In this document: positions 26,360-57,197 of the stretch, piece by piece
How the letters are laid out: each line of letters opens with the position of its first letter
How positions within the stretch are numbered: the first letter of the stretch is position 1
Made by a program: the position numbers and the translations under genes
Assembly (NCBI GenBank): GCA_944389885.1
Contig: CALXNZ010000014.1
Location: 1-61,785 of the forward strand
DNA length: 61,785 nucleotides
Source of the DNA: an uncultured Opitutales bacterium
GTDB lineage: Bacteria; Verrucomicrobiota; Verrucomicrobiia; Opitutales; Intestinicryptomonadaceae
Direction: 5' to 3'
The notes under the pieces: generated by a model
Database searches by the model: none
What the model saw: only the letters and a program-made list of their open reading frames with translations
What the model was told of the DNA's origin: nothing

Positions 26360-27715
26360 TTACGGAGTGCCGCCGGTGAGGTAGGAAATTGTCGCGAGGG
26401 CGTCTTGCCAATCGTACTTTGCCGAAACCGCATCGGCCTGGGCGGAAGTGTATGAAACTTGGGCGTCCGTACGCTCGAGGGACGAAGCTTTGCCGACATT
26501 AAAACGTTCCGTAACCAAATCGAGATTTTCTTTTGCCACTTTTGCTGAAGCCAGCGCAACTTCATAGCGCTTTTTTGATTCTTTGAGATTTAATAGTGCC
26601 GTTGTAAGTTCGGCGTATGCGTTTTGTTCGTATTCCGAAATTTTGCTCCTGGCGCTTCTGAGTTCTGCTACGGCTTGTTTTATGGCATTTATATTGCTAT
26701 TACCGTTGAAAATATTTTGCGCAATTTCAGCTCCTCCGGACACATTCCATATTGCGGGCCAACCCGATGAGAGTCCGGACGCAAGCGCTTCTGCGTTTAA
26801 GCTTATGGTTGGGTATAAATTAGCGATTTGTTCGTCTATATAGGAGCTTGCCCCCTTTGCGTTTGCGTAAAGAACTCCGAGGGAGGGGTCGTTTTTCCTC
26901 AAAATGTCCATCAGCTGTTCGAGGCTCAAGTTTGTATCGGGCATCATGCCGTCCCCGGTTTTAAAGTCTATATTTTGGTCAAATCCAAGGGCTTTTATTA
27001 AATTTGCCTCGGCGATACGGATATTGTTGGAGGTCGTAATCTGTTCAAGAACCGATGAGTCGTAGTCGACCCTGGCTTTTGAGCAGTCGTATTTTGTCCC
27101 TTTTCCATGTTCGTATTTTGCCAGCATGTGGTCTAAGTGCTCTTTGTATTGGGCCACCGCTTGTTCGGCTACGGTATTTAGTTCTATGGCGCGTTTTAAT
27201 TCAAAAAACGCCTGCCTCAGCCTATATATCGTATCGAGTTCTGCGAGTATCAATTCCTTTTCGGCGGCAATCACATTTTGTATTTGCCGGGCCACTTTTG
27301 CATCTGTCTTTCCAAAATCGTATATTAAGAGCTCGAAATCTATGCCGCCGTATCCGTTGCCCTTCATTTTTCCGCTTTGTCCGCGTTTCACCGTATTTTG
27401 CGTACTCTCCTCAAATCCAAGATTCGCGTCTATCACGGGTAGGTAGTCCGATTTTACTATTTTCAATTCCAGCTGGGCGGATATGAGATTTTGTCGGGCC
27501 TGAAATATTGTCGGGCTTGCCGCAAGCGCGAAATCTTCGAGGTCCTTTAGCGAATATACTCCTCCAGATTTCATTCCGATTTCTTCCGGTTTAACCGTGC
27601 GTTCGCCGGGCATCATGGAGTTTTCGCTTTGCGCCTCCCTGGCTTCTTCCACCGTTTGGCATGAAGCGCAAAAGAACACGCATATTAGAAAAAAATATGG
27701 GAATATGTCTTTCAT
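26360..27715 (-). CDS. TolC-family outer membrane efflux lipoprotein
   Basis: 451-aa outer-membrane factor. The frame opens at 27781, but ATG 27715 starts a lipoprotein signal (MKDIFPYFFLICVFFCASC, Cys19) and its ATGA overlaps the RND stop. Two related halves with long helices follow, as in the OEP family: FALAASPTIFQARQNLISAQLELKI... and AKGASSYIDEQIANLYPTISL. It would form the exit duct of the RND pump upstream. Unlike the pump and adaptor genes, its frame is uninterrupted, so it may still be made, perhaps serving other pumps; upstream translation stops could reduce its expression by polarity. Confidence 0.9.
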   Translation of the reverse strand: MKDIFPYFFLICVFFCASCQTVEEAREAQSENSMMPGERTVKPEEIGMKSGGVYSLKDLEDFALAASPTIFQARQNLISAQLELKIVKSDYLPVIDANLGFEESTQNTVKRGQSGKMKGNGYGGIDFELLIYDFGKTDAKVARQIQNVIAAEKELILAELDTIYRLRQAFFELKRAIELNTVAEQAVAQYKEHLDHMLAKYEHGKGTKYDCSKARVDYDSSVLEQITTSNNIRIAEANLIKALGFDQNIDFKTGDGMMPDTNLSLEQLMDILRKNDPSLGVLYANAKGASSYIDEQIANLYPTISLNAEALASGLSSGWPAIWNVSGGAEIAQNIFNGNSNINAIKQAVAELRSARSKISEYEQNAYAELTTALLNLKESKKRYEVALASAKVAKENLDLVTERFNVGKASSLERTDAQVSYTSAQADAVSAKYDWQDALATISYLTGGTP

Positions 27716-30700
27716 CGCATCTTTATCCCCATCTTTGTATTTGAATATTCGCGTACGGTTTGCACGAGGGTGTAGAGGCATGGGGTCATTATTATTCCGA
27801 GGATTGTTGCCATCAACATTCCGGAAAATGTTGTTATGCCTATCGCCCTGCGGCTTGCCGCCCCCGCGCCTGTTGCGACAACAAGGGGAAGCACTCCGAA
27901 TACGAACGACAACGCCGTCATCATTACAGCCCTGAAACGCTGTCTGGCTCCGCTTACGGCCGATTCATATATTGGTACCCCCGCCTCGCGCTCCTGCTTT
28001 GAAAATTCAACCATTAGAATGGCGTTTTTTGCGGTGAGTCCCACAAGCATTACCATGCCGAGCTGGGCGTATATGCTGAACGATTCACCCGTAATCAGCA
28101 ATCCTATTAGCGCGCCAAGAATGGGAGTCGCCACCGTCATCATAATGGGCACGGGAATTGTCCAACTCTCGTATTGAGCCACAAGGAATAAGTAGGCAAA
28201 CAATATTGCAAGAGCCATAAGCGATACTATCTTATTTTCGTTTTGTTTTTCCTGATAGCTCATGTTTGTCCATGCGATGTCGTATCCGAATGGAAGCTTT
28301 ATGTTTTCTATCTTATCCATAATCTCTCCGCTTGAGACACTTGAGTCTATCATTACGTTTACGTCCGTAGAGAGAAGCTTGTTATACATGCTTATTTGTT
28401 TGGGAGCAGCCCCGTATTTTGCGTTGGCAACCGTACCCATGGGGGTCATTTCTCCATCGTAGGTTTGAATTTGCAATTCCATGAGATCTTCAAGGGTGGA
28501 ACGCATATCTTTTTCAGCCTGCATATTTACTTCAAATACGTCTCCAAGAATGTTGAAATCGTTTATGTAATAAGAGGCTATGTTGCTTTGGAGGGTTGAG
28601 AATATAGAACTTACTGGAATTCCGAGCAATTCGGCTTTTTCCCTGTCTATTTCTACGGAGAACTGCGGAATTTCTCCGGAATTTGAGCTCATAGCCGTAG
28701 CCACTCCAGGCATCGATGATATTTCAGCCGCCAATTTTTTCGCATTTTCCATAATTTCCCGCGTGGACACTTCTCCCGAAGCCGTCAGCGAAAATGAAAT
28801 TCCGCCCGTAATGCCGAGCCCCATGATTGCCGGGGGCGTAAATGCCATAACGCTTGCTTCCGGTATCCTTTTAGCGCCATCTTGAATCTGCTTTACTATG
28901 CTGTATATCGACAATTCCGGTGTCTTGCGCACGCTCCAGTCTTCAAGTTCAACTATGGCCATAGCTACGTTTTCGCCGTTGCCGTTTATCATTCCGTGCC
29001 CGTTGACGGTCATGTAGTTTTTTATTCCGCCAATTTTAGACACAATGCTTTCAAATTTTTTTGTGGCGCTTTCGGTTCTCGCCAGCGATGCGCCGGGCGG
29101 CAGCTCTATTTCGCACATTATCGAGCCTTTGTCTTCAGTAGGTATGAACGATGACCGAATATAACCAAATAATATGTACGAAATACCGGATATCGCGCAA
29201 AAAATTAAAAAGGTTAGTGGTATGCGCTTCGCAAAAATTCCGACAATTCCTGTATATATATCGCGGCTTTTATTTATAAGAAAGTTTACCGGGGCGAATA
29301 TGCGTTTTTCCGATGCGTTTGCATTCCTCAACATTATCGCGCATAGGGCAGGGCTTAATGTTAATGCCACGAGCGTAGATATGGATAGGGCAACGCACAT
29401 AGTTACGGCGAATTGCGTGTATATTTCTCCAACCATTCCGCCATAAAAGGCGAGCGGCACATAGCATGCTATCGTAACGAGCGTCGTGGCTATTACGGCT
29501 CCCGTTATCTGTTTCATCGATTTTATGCTCGCGCTCTTTGAGTCGAGCTTGTCGCGTTGCATCACAGACTGGCAGTTTTCAACCACGACTATTGCATCGT
29601 CAACGAGCGAGCCTATAACTAAAATCAATCCGAACATCGTCAGAAGATTTATGCTGTATCCCAGCGCGTACATCGCCGTAAACGTGCCCACGAGAGAAAT
29701 AGGTATTGCAACCGCGGGAATTATTGTGGCTCTCCAGTCTTGTAAAAATAAATATGTTATCAATACGACAAGTGCGAGGGCCGAGAGAAGCGTCACCACT
29801 ATTTCTCTCATGGAAATTTCTATGAATTTGGTTGGGTCGTAGGCTGTTTCCCAAGATACGCCTTCGGGGAAGTTTCTGGATAGGCGCTTCAATTCGGCTT
29901 TTACCGCGTTTACGGTATTTAGAGCGTTGGCGTCGGTTGTTTTAAATACTCCGAGCCCGACGGAGCTTTTCCCGTTGTATCTACAACTGGACGCGTAGGA
30001 ATCCGCTCCGAGTTCCACGCGGGCTATGTCTTTTAGGCGGAGAATGTTTCCGTCCGAGTCGTTTTTAATTATTATGTTTTCAAATTCCTCTTGTGTTTTT
30101 AATCTGCCCTTTATATCCACTTTGAATTACACGAAGTCGTTTCCCCCTTCGGAGCCGACCATGCCGGCTGCGGCTTGGATATTTTGACTCTCTACGGCGC
30201 TTTTTATGTCGTCGGTGGATATTCCCAATCCCCCCATTCTAATCGGATCTATCCATATCCGCATGGAAAAGGTCATGCCCCCGAATACGTCGGCTGCGGA
30301 CACGCCGTCTATGCGGCTGATTGCGTCGGCTATCGTAGTGGAGGCGTAGTTGTTGAGCTCCAGCTCCGACATATGTGAACCGTCAGTCATAAGTTGGAAC
30401 ATCGCCAGCAAATCTCCCGTACGCTTGCGAACGTTAACTCCGGTTCGCTGCACTTCGCTTGGCAGTTTGGCCTCGGAACGTTTCACTGCGTTTTGGACCT
30501 CCACCATTGCGATGTCGGAATTTGTTCCGGTCTTGAATGTCAACGAACATGAGTAAGATCCGGTGTTGGAGCATTCAGAGTCGAAATACAATAGGTTTTC
30601 AAGGCCGTTCAATTCAGATTCTAATACAAGAGCTACGGTGTCGCGCAAAACTTCCGCGCTGGCTCCGCTGTATGTGGCGCTGACCCTTATCTGCGGCGGA

Positions 30701-30819
30701 GATATCTCCGGATAATCGGCAACCGGAAGTTTTGTTATGGTTAGCGACCCCGTAATTACAAGCAGCAGGCTTATTACGGCCGCGAACCTCGGGTGTTCTA
30801 TAAAAAATTTGGAAAACAT
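27712..30819 (-). pseudogene. RND efflux pump (AcrB/HAE1 type), interrupted by an in-frame TAA
   Basis: Full-length 1036-codon RND transporter frame with a single TAA stop at codon 231 (30129-30127). Codons before and after it are in the same frame and match the family without gap: ...EGGNDFV, stop, FKVDIKGRLKTQEEF... The family commonly has Gln here, so CAA to TAA is the simplest cause. All other features are intact: TM4 SLVDDAIVVVEN with the Asp pair, TM10 GLTAKNAILMVEF with the Lys, periplasmic porter and docking domains. Start ATG 30819 overlaps the adaptor's stop by 1 nt. Two separate shorter reading frames (30822-30127 and 30120-27712) arise from the stop. Probably non-functional, unless read through or a sequencing error. 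Confidence 0.85.
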
Positions 30820-31923
30820 CAATCGACCTGTTTTAATGCTTTTACTTTGACATTTTCGATGACCTTATGGACGCCGTCGCTAACAATGCGTTCCCCCTCC
30901 TTTAATCCGGAGTTTATGAATTATTTTTCCCCCCTCCGAACGCCCGAGTTCGACATTTCTGCGCCGCGGGATATCGTTGCCGTCGAGAACGAAAACGTAT
31001 GGGGAGTCGTCGTCGTACATTATGGAGCTCGTGGGTACGGAGACTTTTTCTATGCCGTCGCGATTTCTGAGATATACGGCAACTGTATTATTGGGAAGCA
31101 AGCGCGATTTGGCGTTTTTGAATTTTGCAAACACTTGAATGGTATCTGTTGTTTTTACGGCCTCGTTATTTATAAACTCAATCTCCCCGTCGCTTTCATA
31201 GAAGCTTCCGTCGGCAAGTTTTAAACGCACTATGCATTTATTCTTCAATCCTTCAAAATCTGAAAAATTATTTAGATAGTCTTTCGTACTCATCGAGAAT
31301 TTTACCCGAATGGGATCGAGCTGTACTATTGTCGCCAAAACTCCGGACGAGGGCGTGATATAATTTCCCTCCGTGTAGTTGGTTTGGCCTATAACTCCGG
31401 ATATCGGGGAGTATATTTTGCAATGCTTGTAATCATCTTCTGATAAGATTATGTCGGCCTGCGCTCCGAGAAGGGACGCTTGATAGGATTTATATTGGCT
31501 TAGAGCGCTTTCCATTTCGTCCTTTGTGGAAACCCCTTTTTTAAAAAGTTCGTTTGTGCGCTCATAATCGTTTTTCGCGTATAATAATTTGGCTTCGTAT
31601 TCGGCTATGCGGGCTTGGTCGCTTTTGAAAGCGGCTTCGTATCTGGTATCGTCGAAGGTGTATAGGAGATGGCCCTTTTCAACGAAATCTCCTTCGGAAA
31701 ACCCGACATCGAGAAGATCGGCAGATATTCTCGATGTAATATTAACCGTAGAAATGGGGACGACCCGCCCCGTGTATCTATATTCGTCTATTTCTCTTGA
31801 TAATATGGCTGTGGTTTCCGGCACGGATATTTAGGCGCGTTTGGCGCGGCGTTCGGCGCGGCTTGGAAGTTGGAATGAAGCGAGCGGCATCAATGCGGAA
31901 ATTATGAAAATAGTTCTCTTCAT
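30819..31923 (-). pseudogene. RND adaptor (membrane fusion protein), broken by a nonsense codon and a frameshift
   Basis: The ATG at 31923 overlaps the marR stop (ATGA) and begins a signal peptide (MKRTIFIISALMPLASF). After 30 codons the frame hits TAA at 31833-31831, then continues in the same frame with ISVPETTAILSREIDEY and the usual HlyD/AcrA body: barrel-sandwich EGDFVEKGHLLYTFDDTRYE, helical hairpin, YSPISGVIGQTNYTEGNY. Near the C-terminus one extra base at about 30918 shifts the frame. Removing it restores IINSGLKEGERIVSDGVHKV through KALKQVD and a TGA that overlaps the RND start by one base. Without that repair the frame ends early as GGGTHC. Two independent lesions indicate decay. 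Confidence 0.85.
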
Positions 31924-32384
31924 AGCAGATCCTTATTCAGATTCTTATGCAAGGCGTTCATTATTCTAAATAGCGACTTTCTATCGCCTTTAGGGATTCT
32001 TGTGATTGCAGGGAAAAAGTACTCTTGGCTGATTTTACGAATCCTGTTGTTTAGGTTTTCCAGTTTTTTTGTGGGGTATATTACAATATTTCTTGAATCT
32101 TCATCGGAGCGGATCTTCCTTAGATACCCCCGTTTTATAAGCCTTGATATAGACTGCGATGCGAGGCTTTTAGATATGCCGAACTCCTGTATCATTTTTT
32201 TCAGCATTGTGCCATTGGGGTTCTTGTCCACATAGTGAAGAATTTCTATTTGCGACAAAGTAAGCCCTCTAAGGCGGCGGTTGTCCTTGTATGCCACAAA
32301 GCGCCTCATCTTTTCCGAGCAAATATGCAGTATTTCGCATATATCGGAAGGGGAGGGGTTCTTTTCATTTATATCTATTGGCAT
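31920..32384 (-). CDS. MarR-family transcriptional regulator
   Basis: 154-aa winged-helix repressor, first gene of the efflux operon. The DNA-binding core is LTLSQIEILHYVDKNPNGTMLKKMIQEFGISKSLASQSISRLIKRGYLRKIRSDEDSRN in family order, with helix-turn-helix near residues 70-92 and the wing DEDSRN. Long terminal helices would form the dimer. Two 18-bp palindromes lie directly upstream and are the likely binding sites, so the gene is probably autorepressed. Its stop overlaps the adaptor's ATG. Confidence 0.92.
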   Translation of the reverse strand: MPIDINEKNPSPSDICEILHICSEKMRRFVAYKDNRRLRGLTLSQIEILHYVDKNPNGTMLKKMIQEFGISKSLASQSISRLIKRGYLRKIRSDEDSRNIVIYPTKKLENLNNRIRKISQEYFFPAITRIPKGDRKSLFRIMNALHKNLNKDLL

Positions 32385-32387
32385 ATT

Positions 32388-32405
32388 AGTTTACTGCGAT
32401 AAACT
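32388..32405. promoter_or_regulatory. Operator O1 of the MarR regulator
   Basis: AGTTTACTGCGATAAACT: 6-bp arms AGTTTA/TAAACT, just upstream of the marR ATG (32384) and overlapping where the -10/start region would be. Same arm sequence as O2. Confidence 0.7.
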
Positions 32406-32419
32406 TTTTTAATTTTATA

Positions 32420-32425
32420 TGTCAA
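32420..32425 (-). promoter_or_regulatory. Probable -35 element of the marR-efflux promoter
   Basis: Minus strand reads TTGACA, a perfect sigma-70 -35 box, placed between O2 and O1. About 16-17 nt downstream the sequence enters O1 (TTTATC/TTATCG), a poor -10, so the exact -10 is uncertain. Confidence 0.5.
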
Positions 32426-32431
32426 CGAAAA

Positions 32432-32449
32432 AGTTTATCTAAATAAACT
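32432..32449. promoter_or_regulatory. Operator O2 of the MarR regulator
   Basis: AGTTTATCTAAATAAACT: arms AGTTTAT/ATAAACT, 44 bp centre to centre from O1 (about four helical turns), upstream of the -35 box. Rest of 32385-32658 shows no gene. Confidence 0.7.
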
Positions 32450-53933: not shown

Positions 53934-54084
53934 AATTTTATCTCCGAATTCTCTATAATATTATGATGGTATATATGGCAAGAAATATTAGCGAAATTTT
54001 TTGCTTGAATTGGAGGCGGGTTTTTTTACAGGTTAATAGCAAGTTCTTTTACTTTAGGGGGCCCTGTTGCGCAGGGTTTGCCTA

Positions 54085-54240
54085 TTCCCCACACAAACGG
54101 AAATCCGTGAAAATCGGATGCGGTCGCGCCGCTGTGAGGCGTGTGACTTCAATGCAATGCCACTGCGAAAATTTGCGGGAAGGCGCATTGAATAGGAATC
54201 GAAGAAATTCCGTCACGCCAAGCCAGAAGACGTGTGTTTG
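54085..54240 (+). ncRNA. Cobalamin (B12) riboswitch upstream of nrdD
   Basis: Contains the conserved core in order: GGAAATCCGTGAAAATCGG (P3-P4 region), CGGTCGCGCCGCTGTGAGG, GCCACTGCG with GCGGGAAGGCG, and the B12 box AAGCCAGAAGACG (54220-54232). P1 pairs CACAC (54090-54094) with GTGTG (54232-54236). It ends ~160 nt before the nrdD start; that stretch can form a GC hairpin GCGCGGG/CCCGCGC (54348-54354 with 54367-54373) 26 nt before the ATG, a candidate expression platform. Binding of adenosylcobalamin should reduce nrdDG expression. The rest of 53934-54084 holds only the rbsK promoter and a CCCTG/CAGGG hairpin. Confidence 0.92.
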
Positions 54241-54399
54241 AGGAATAAAATTCACATAGCTCTCGCGTAAAAGGGTATTTGAATTGCGTCGTTGTGGTGC
54301 CGCAGCTTAGTTTGCGGTTTCTGTGGCATGTTTTCATATCTTTGCATGCGCGGGCTTAACGCAGTTCCCGCGCGCAACGGGGACATTGGAAAATATGCA

Positions 54400-56556
54400 A
54401 TGTACTCTAAAATCAAATTCTCTAAAATTGTAAAACGCAACGGGGAAGTTCGAGACTTCAATCCGGAAAAAATTGAAAACGCAATATTTAAGGCAATGAG
54501 GGCGATAGGCTCTCCGGATCGCAAGGCTGCTTCGGATATTTGCCAAAAAGTTTTGGCAATAATCTCGCTAAAATGTCCGCCGGAGAAGAATCCTACGGTG
54601 GAATGCGTACAGGATATCGTTGAACAGGCTATATTTGACAGCGGAAATTTCGCTTTGCTGAAAGCGTTTTTGATTTATCGGCACCAGCATGCCCAGATTA
54701 GAAATTTTAAGGAAAATTTTTCAAATGTGGATTCTGTAGATGACTATCTTTCAGAAGCCGATTGGAAAGTAAAGGAAAGCGCAAATTCGGCGTATTCACT
54801 GCAGGGATTAAATCAACACATTTCATCTAAGGTGACGTCACAGTATTGGTTGTCCAAACTTTATTCGGAGACCGTTTCAAACGCGCACGATTCCGGCGAC
54901 ATACATATCCACGATCTCGGTTTTTTAAGTGTTTACTGCGTCGGCTGGGATTTGCAAGACCTCCTGTCAACCGGGTTCAAAGGCGTGGCGGGTAAAGCGC
55001 AAGCGGCTCCCCCAAGGCATCTGCGAACCGCTCTTGGACAGATAGTAAACTTCTTCTATACAATGCAAGGCGAGGCGGCCGGAGCCCAGGCGTTCTCAAA
55101 TTTCGATACTCTTCTTGCCCCATACGTCAGATATGACAAGCTGTCCTATGAGCAGGTGCGTCAATGCTTTCAAGAATTTCTCTTTAATCTAAACGTTCCC
55201 ACGCGTGTCGGCTTTCAGACTCCATTTACGAATATTACAATGGACTTGAAAGTGCCGGATTTTATGAGAGGGCAGCCCGTTGTTTATGCCGGAGAGATTA
55301 TGCGCGATACATATGGCGCCTTTCAAGAGGAAATGAATCTTGTAAACATGGCATTTGCCGAGCTTATGTATGAAGGGGACGCTTCCGGCAGTTTATTTTC
55401 CTTCCCAATTCCCACATACAATATAACCCGCGATTTTGAATGGGATAATCCGGTTTACGAACCTATATGGAAAATGACGGCAAAATATGGAATACCGTAC
55501 TTTTCAAATTTTGTAAATTCGGATATGGATCCCGAAGACGTCCGCAGTATGTGCTGCCGTTTAAGGCTCGACAAGCGCGAACTTGCCAAGCGCGGAGGCG
55601 GATTGTTCGCCTCAAACCCGCTCACCGGTTCCGTCGGGGTCGTGACTATTAACATGGCCAGGCTCGGGTACCTCTCAGACTGCAAAAAAAATTTTTACGA
55701 GCGCTTGCGAAAGTTGATGGAAATAGCAAAAGAGAGTCTTGAAGTAAAGCGCAAGACTATAGAACTCTATACCGATAAGGGGCTATATCCATATTCAAAG
55801 TTTTATCTGCGCAACTTGCGCTGCCGTTTTGGACAATATTGGAAAAATCATTTTTCCACTATCGGAATTAACGGCATGAACGAGTGTTGCATGAATTTTC
55901 TCGGATTGCCCATATCGCATCCCGATTCCATTGATTTTTCGCGGGAGGTTATGTTGTTTATGCGCTCCGTCCTCGAAGAATTTCAGCGCGAGACTGGAAA
56001 TATATACAACCTTGAAGCAACACCGGCAGAGAGCGCGGCTTACCGGTTCGCTTTGTTAGATACCCGGAAATATCGGGATATAATCGTTGCGAACCAGTCG
56101 GATTTCTTGCGCGGGGCGAAACCATATTATACAAATTCCTCGCAACTTCCGGTAAATCACACCGACGACCTGTTTGAAGCCTTGCGCATTCAGGATTCTC
56201 TACAGACACTCTATACCGGAGGGACTGTATTCCATGTATTCACCGGAGAAAGCGCCATGACTTGCAAAGCGGCAAGAAATATGGTGCGCAAAGTCTGCGA
56301 GAATTTTAAGCTTCCATATATAACCCTATCTCCGTCGTTCAGCGTATGTCCGAATCACGGATATATTTCAGGCGAACATTTTGCATGCCCAAAATGCGGA
56401 GAAAGGAGTGAAGTATATAGCAGGATAGTGGGATACATGCGCCCCGTATCGCAATGGAACGAAGGCAAGCGCCGGGAATTTATGGACAGGGCCCACTTTG
56501 ATAAGAGCGTACTGGATTGTTCAAATTCTAAGAGGGCGGAGAGCTTATGCGTATAG
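54400..56556 (+). CDS. nrdD: Anaerobic ribonucleoside-triphosphate reductase
   Basis: Class III glycyl-radical reductase making dNTPs from NTPs without oxygen. 718 aa when started at ATG 54400, where the protein opens with an ATP-cone (KFSKIVKRNGEVRDFNPEKIENAIFKAM); the frame extends to 54292 but that leader is not family-like. Motifs: SGDIHIHDLG, GMNECCMNFLGLP (thiyl radical region), Zn site CPNHGY... CPKCGE, and the glycyl radical loop RIVGYMRPVSQW with Gly near the C-terminus. Under a B12 riboswitch. Overlaps nrdG by 10 nt. Confidence 0.96.
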   Translation: MYSKIKFSKIVKRNGEVRDFNPEKIENAIFKAMRAIGSPDRKAASDICQKVLAIISLKCPPEKNPTVECVQDIVEQAIFDSGNFALLKAFLIYRHQHAQIRNFKENFSNVDSVDDYLSEADWKVKESANSAYSLQGLNQHISSKVTSQYWLSKLYSETVSNAHDSGDIHIHDLGFLSVYCVGWDLQDLLSTGFKGVAGKAQAAPPRHLRTALGQIVNFFYTMQGEAAGAQAFSNFDTLLAPYVRYDKLSYEQVRQCFQEFLFNLNVPTRVGFQTPFTNITMDLKVPDFMRGQPVVYAGEIMRDTYGAFQEEMNLVNMAFAELMYEGDASGSLFSFPIPTYNITRDFEWDNPVYEPIWKMTAKYGIPYFSNFVNSDMDPEDVRSMCCRLRLDKRELAKRGGGLFASNPLTGSVGVVTINMARLGYLSDCKKNFYERLRKLMEIAKESLEVKRKTIELYTDKGLYPYSKFYLRNLRCRFGQYWKNHFSTIGINGMNECCMNFLGLPISHPDSIDFSREVMLFMRSVLEEFQRETGNIYNLEATPAESAAYRFALLDTRKYRDIIVANQSDFLRGAKPYYTNSSQLPVNHTDDLFEALRIQDSLQTLYTGGTVFHVFTGESAMTCKAARNMVRKVCENFKLPYITLSPSFSVCPNHGYISGEHFACPKCGERSEVYSRIVGYMRPVSQWNEGKRREFMDRAHFDKSVLDCSNSKRAESLCV

Positions 56557-57197
56557 GCGGGTTTATAAAGCAGAGTCTTGTCGATTGGGACGGCAGGCTC
56601 TGCGCTGTCATATTTACGCGCTCCTGCAACCTGCGCTGCTTCTATTGCCACAATCCGACCCTCGTATTGCCTAATCTTTTCCACGAGGAAAGCGATATTG
56701 ATGCTGGGGATATTCTGGAATATTTATCAAGGCGCGCAAGCTTTCTCGACGGGGTGGTAATTACGGGGGGAGAACCTACCGTGCAATCCGATATAGCCGA
56801 GTTTATCGCTAAGATAAAATCAATGGATTATGCTGTAAAGCTCGATACGAACGGGACGAATCCCGATATTTTAAGAAGTTTAACGCGCGATTCTTTGTTG
56901 GATTTTGTGGCAATGGACATAAAACACGAATTGGACTTCGCGAAATATTCTTCCATATCTAAGGGCATATCGCGCGCTTGTTTTGAGAAAATTCTTGAGA
57001 GCGTCGCCATATTGGAACAGAAAAACATTCCATTTGTTTTCAGGACAACTGTCGTTCCGGGAATTCATTCCAAGGAGTCAATAGAGCGTCTAAAAAGGCG
57101 TTTTCCTGGCATTCTGCTTCAGAATTACAGATCTGAATTTGAAACTCTTAAAGACGCCGTTCATGCGCTTCATCAGATGAAAAGTCAAAGCATTTAG
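56547..57197 (+). CDS. nrdG: Anaerobic RNR-activating protein (radical SAM)
   Basis: 216-aa radical SAM enzyme that installs the glycyl radical on NrdD. The cluster motif CNLRCFYC (C27, C31, C34) is preceded by FIKQSLVDWDGRLCAVIFT; then VITGGEPTVQ. Starts 10 nt inside the nrdD end, ensuring stoichiometric synthesis. The region shared with pyruvate formate-lyase activases makes them similar, but the position fixes the role. Confidence 0.95.
   Translation: MRIGGFIKQSLVDWDGRLCAVIFTRSCNLRCFYCHNPTLVLPNLFHEESDIDAGDILEYLSRRASFLDGVVITGGEPTVQSDIAEFIAKIKSMDYAVKLDTNGTNPDILRSLTRDSLLDFVAMDIKHELDFAKYSSISKGISRACFEKILESVAILEQKNIPFVFRTTVVPGIHSKESIERLKRRFPGILLQNYRSEFETLKDAVHALHQMKSQSI

What the first reader, a model, noticed from the sequence alone, without database searches (positions are those of the whole stretch)
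27712..31923. Efflux operon in the act of decay: adaptor and RND pump broken, regulator and TolC intact
Seen: MFP has a TAA at codon 31 and a one-base insertion near 30918; RND has one TAA at codon 231, with flanking codons in frame and matching the family. All gene junctions (ATGA or one-base overlaps) are preserved, so the loss is recent. Inferred: the pump became costly or useless in the present niche, or the genome assembly carries errors. The TAA codons fit Gln (CAA) sites, so C-to-T transitions explain both nonsense changes.
Basis: seen in the sequence. Interest (0 to 1): 0.65.

Follow-up and report, generated by a model that had tools for sequence, protein, structure and literature searches.

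The report
Recently broken drug-efflux pump operon
In an uncultured Opitutales bacterium, the adaptor and pump genes of one of five RND efflux systems carry several inactivating mutations while the neighbouring repressor and outer-membrane channel are intact, which is ordinary, recent gene loss.

Summary
The operon is marR–MFP–RND–tolC on the minus strand. Orthologous operons in related MAGs show that the RND TAA (30127–30129) sits at a codon that is Gln in all five close orthologs covering it; the gene otherwise has their exact length. The MFP TAA at codon 31 (31831–31833) lies in a variable linker, so a former CAA is only one option there. The MFP frameshift lies in the G6A5 tract (30924–30934), not at 30918.

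Genome-wide miscalling is unlikely: the other four RND genes and 26 ABC-transporter, 11 OEP and 6 sulfatase matches have no stops. TAA ends 113 of 223 long genes, so it is not recoded. Changes at conserved sites in the unread RND part are no more frequent than in intact orthologs; three stops suggest about 2–3% neutral divergence since loss. A related genome (G007) is broken in the same two genes by different, homopolymer-slip lesions.

Verdict: a probably real, recent, perhaps recurrent pseudogenization of a dispensable pump. Raw reads could not be checked.

The parts
31920..32384 (-). MarR-family regulator, 154 aa, intact
   Evidence: Pfam MarR_2 E 1.9e-12; same position and similar length (147-167 aa) in G012, G014, G016, G007
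32386..32445 (.). likely promoter/operator: GATAAACTTTTT ... AAAAAGTTTATC inverted repeat (12-nt arms, 18-nt spacer) with a TTGACA in the spacer
   Evidence: TTGAC(A/T) and TAAACT-like half-sites also upstream of marR in G012, G014, G016, G007; function inferred
30819..31923 (-). MFP (HlyD/AcrA-type adaptor) pseudogene: TAA 31831-31833, frameshift in 30924-30934, TAA 30921-30923 in the frame used by relatives
27712..30819 (-). RND (AcrB/HAE-1 type) pseudogene, one in-frame TAA at 30127-30129, otherwise full length (3108 nt as in four intact orthologs)
26360..27715 (-). TolC-type outer-membrane factor, about 451 aa, intact
   Evidence: Pfam OEP E 8e-57, two repeats; orthologs of about 455-470 aa

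Best explanation
This is a genuine and recent loss of one of five RND efflux systems in this Opitutales lineage. Shown in the sequence: the adaptor's signal peptide is cut off from the rest by a stop at codon 31 and its C-terminus is altered by a frameshift with a hidden stop behind it; the pump is cut at codon 231 of 1035. Inferred: the adaptor cannot be exported, the pump yields at most a short N-terminal fragment, and no tripartite pump is assembled; MarR and TolC persist because little time has passed and possibly because TolC still serves another pump.
For: Intact orthologous genes in G005, G014, G016 and G002 and intact pieces in G012. Lesions aligned against them. Four other RND genes in the genome read through 1046-1100 aa with no stop; 26 ABC_tran, 11 OEP and 6 sulfatase matches have none. 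In a 461-kb sample only this RND gene showed a convincing internal stop. Changes at positions at least 95% conserved: 9 after the stop in the window against 7, 8, 8 and 10 in intact orthologs; dN to outgroups is about equal to that of G012. Neutral divergence implied by three stops is about 1.8-2.8% (95% range about 0.4-8%). G007 is independently broken in both MFP and RND by one-base homopolymer indels.
Against: No reads, RNA or same-species genomes could be examined; the genome is probably a metagenome assembly (inference: 27 contigs, relatives are MAGs), so a consensus of mixed strains is possible. The ORF survey cannot see small C-terminal frameshifts elsewhere, so the background rate of frameshifts is only bounded by the family searches.
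Confidence: 0.83

Rival explanations
1. Assembly or consensus artefact: sequencing errors or a mix of strains in the metagenome placed the stops and the extra base there; the living cell has an intact pump.
For: The frameshift lies in a homopolymer tract (G6A5); the assembly is probably a MAG; reads are not available.
Against: Four lesions fall within about 1.7 kb of two adjacent genes, while all other RND, ABC, OEP and sulfatase matches are clean and the 461-kb sample shows no other convincing in-frame stop. Three of the lesions are stop codons rather than indels.
Confidence: 0.12
2. Slippage-driven on/off switching: short homopolymers in MFP and RND make reversible frameshifts, as reported for mtrC in Neisseria (PMC7431566).
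For: The window MFP frameshift is in G6A5; G007 lesions are in a C run (RND) and an A run (MFP).
Against: The tracts are short (4-6 nt), and the window also has three nonsense codons that slippage cannot reverse.
Confidence: 0.03
3. The genes are still translated in full by stop readthrough or reassigned TAA, or work as a split pump through restart at the GTG that follows each stop.
For: Two TAAs sit at Gln sites; a GTG lies within 6 nt after both the RND and the codon-31 stops.
Against: TAA terminates 113 of 223 long genes; a restart in MFP would lack the signal peptide and would still meet the frameshift; no close ortholog is split at these sites.
Confidence: 0.02

Closest known systems
AcrAB-TolC / MexAB-OprM / CmeABC type HAE-1 RND tripartite efflux operon
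   Same: MFP-RND-OMF gene order; the part of RND after the stop matches CmeB and AcrB over its whole length (E about 1e-172 and 1e-171), with the VDDAI and AKNAI motifs present
   Different: Adaptor and pump are broken here; the regulator is MarR-type, while AcrR and CmeR are TetR-type (own knowledge)
mtrC loss-of-function alleles in Neisseria gonorrhoeae and N. meningitidis (PMC7431566)
   Same: Inactivation of the adaptor gene of an RND pump, arising repeatedly, mostly by slippage in a short repeat
   Different: There it is population-level and linked to niche and drug susceptibility; here several stops make the loss look permanent, the pump gene is broken too, and no niche data exist

Membership tests
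HAE-1 RND efflux operon (by descent) | ACR_tran domain over its full length | tested here: met
   Pfam PF00873 positions 1-221 in the N part and 230-1020 in the C part; whole-genome hit 1-1020 with one stop
HAE-1 RND efflux operon (by descent) | Adjacent MFP and OMF genes arranged as one transcription unit | tested here: met
   Gene order and overlapping junctions; order conserved in relatives; co-transcription itself not tested
Functional RND pump | Uninterrupted adaptor and pump reading frames | tested here: not met
Pseudogene by recent decay | Disabling lesions absent from orthologs | tested here: met
Pseudogene by recent decay | Little loss of constraint outside the lesions | tested here: met
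Pseudogene by recent decay | Lesions present in reads or in other strains of the species | not testable with these tools
   No reads and no same-species genome were available; the closest relative, G012, is about 75% identical in DNA
Stop-codon reassignment (TAA = Gln) | TAA not used to end genes | tested here: not met
   TAA is the commonest stop, 113 of 223 long genes
Phase-variable gene | Reversible repeat-length change as the only lesion | tested here: not met
   Three nonsense codons besides the tract

The most novel reading that the evidence does not exclude
This accessory pump is repeatedly inactivated and lost in this Opitutales family because its activity is harmful in their habitat, so that marR and tolC are kept while adaptor and pump are knocked out by parallel mutations (window and G007).
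Probability: 0.12. Interest if true: 0.4.

Novelty: new member of a known kind. Interest (0 to 1): 0.17.

Why it matters
It is a clean example of efflux loss caught early in an uncultured lineage, with a second independent break in a related genome. It could help to ask which pumps are dispensable in such bacteria, but it changes no general picture.

Tried and rejected
TAA = Gln recoding: rejected, since TAA is the main stop. Genome-wide decay or a poor assembly: not supported. A split pump by restart at GTG: rejected, since the adaptor would have no signal peptide and a second lesion remains. dN/dS by branch: dS is saturated, so only relative dN and conserved-site counts were used. Consensus promoter and terminator scan: no more hits than in shuffles.

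Full report
Observation. The operon lies on the minus strand: marR 32384-31920, MFP from 31923, RND 30819-27712, tolC 27715-26360. Pfam recognises MarR, an HlyD-type adaptor, ACR_tran on both sides of the RND stop, and two OEP repeats. Among solved structures the RND part is closest in sequence to CmeB and AcrB.

Relatives. The window lies in a 2.21-Mb, 27-contig genome. Orthologs of the RND at about 70-87% identity occur in G002, G005, G007, G012, G014 and G016; the other genomes of the genus gave only more distant relatives of about 40% or less, so the operon is patchy. Operon regions were fetched and read. MarR precedes the MFP in G012, G014, G016 and G007; no MarR gene was seen at that place in G005 and G002.

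Lesions. RND: the window and four orthologs have exactly 3108 nt; the only lesion is TAA at 30127-30129, where five orthologs have CAG (four) or CAA (one). In 80 wider homologs the site is most often Gln (37), otherwise Glu, Asn, Ser, Thr or Tyr. MFP: the TAA at codon 31 lies between signal peptide and mature domain, in a stretch that varies in length and sequence among relatives, so its origin is open. Near the 3' end DNA alignment puts the one-base excess in the G6A5 tract 30924-30934; behind it, in the frame that relatives use, a third TAA lies at 30921-30923 where all six orthologs and 58 of 73 wider homologs have Gln.

Is it an error? In the same genome the other four RND genes (1046-1100 aa) have no stops, nor do 26 ABC_tran, 11 OEP and 6 sulfatase matches. 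In 461 kb of sampled sequence one other in-frame stop between coding-like stretches was flagged (L145, 9416), and it looks like a normal gene boundary. TAA ends 113 of 223 long genes, so it is not reassigned. Reads are not available, so artefact is unlikely but not excluded.

How old? dS to all relatives is saturated, but dN from the window to outgroups is about the same as from G012 to outgroups. At 249 positions conserved in at least 95% of 76 wider homologs, the window departs at 9 sites after the stop, intact orthologs at 7, 8, 8 and 10. Three stops in about 4.2 kb suggest 1.8-2.8% neutral divergence since constraint ended, with a wide range of about 0.4-8%. This is a rough figure that assumes unconstrained substitution.

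Recurrence. G007 has the same operon broken in the same two genes by different lesions: one extra base in a C run in RND and one missing base in an A run near the MFP start. G007 is only 80% complete in 140 contigs, so this too needs reads.

Why keep marR and tolC? Little time has passed. In addition, the pump on contig 1 (173799-176909) has an adaptor but no outer-membrane factor beside it, so a shared TolC is possible; this is inference. The upstream inverted repeat that may serve as MarR operator is intact.

Comparison. Loss of an RND adaptor by repeated frameshift is documented for mtrC of Neisseria (PMC7431566). The present case is a further example of known biology, so interest is low.

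Noticed in passing
window 54039-57197 (+): Cobalamin riboswitch (Rfam RF00174, 68.6 bits) directly upstream of two genes that look like an anaerobic class III ribonucleotide reductase and its activase (by eye, no family search): a B12-sensing switch before a B12-independent enzyme.
   Followed up: partly
L040 (G007 contig 41): Orthologous operon independently broken in MFP and RND by one-base homopolymer indels; its proteins are closest to those of the other genus (G014/G016), suggesting transfer or misbinning.
   Followed up: partly
L044 2577-6949 (G000 contig 1): MFP-RND pair without an adjacent outer-membrane factor; may borrow a TolC.
   Followed up: no
L072: A Desulfovibrio piger contig (NZ_JABAFY010000048.1) carries an RND 56% identical to the window's, otherwise found mostly in Lentisphaeria-type MAGs; transfer or contamination.
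   Followed up: no
G005 contig 38, G006 contig 150, G003 contig 14; L074: Other RND genes in related genomes also show one internal stop each.
   Followed up: no
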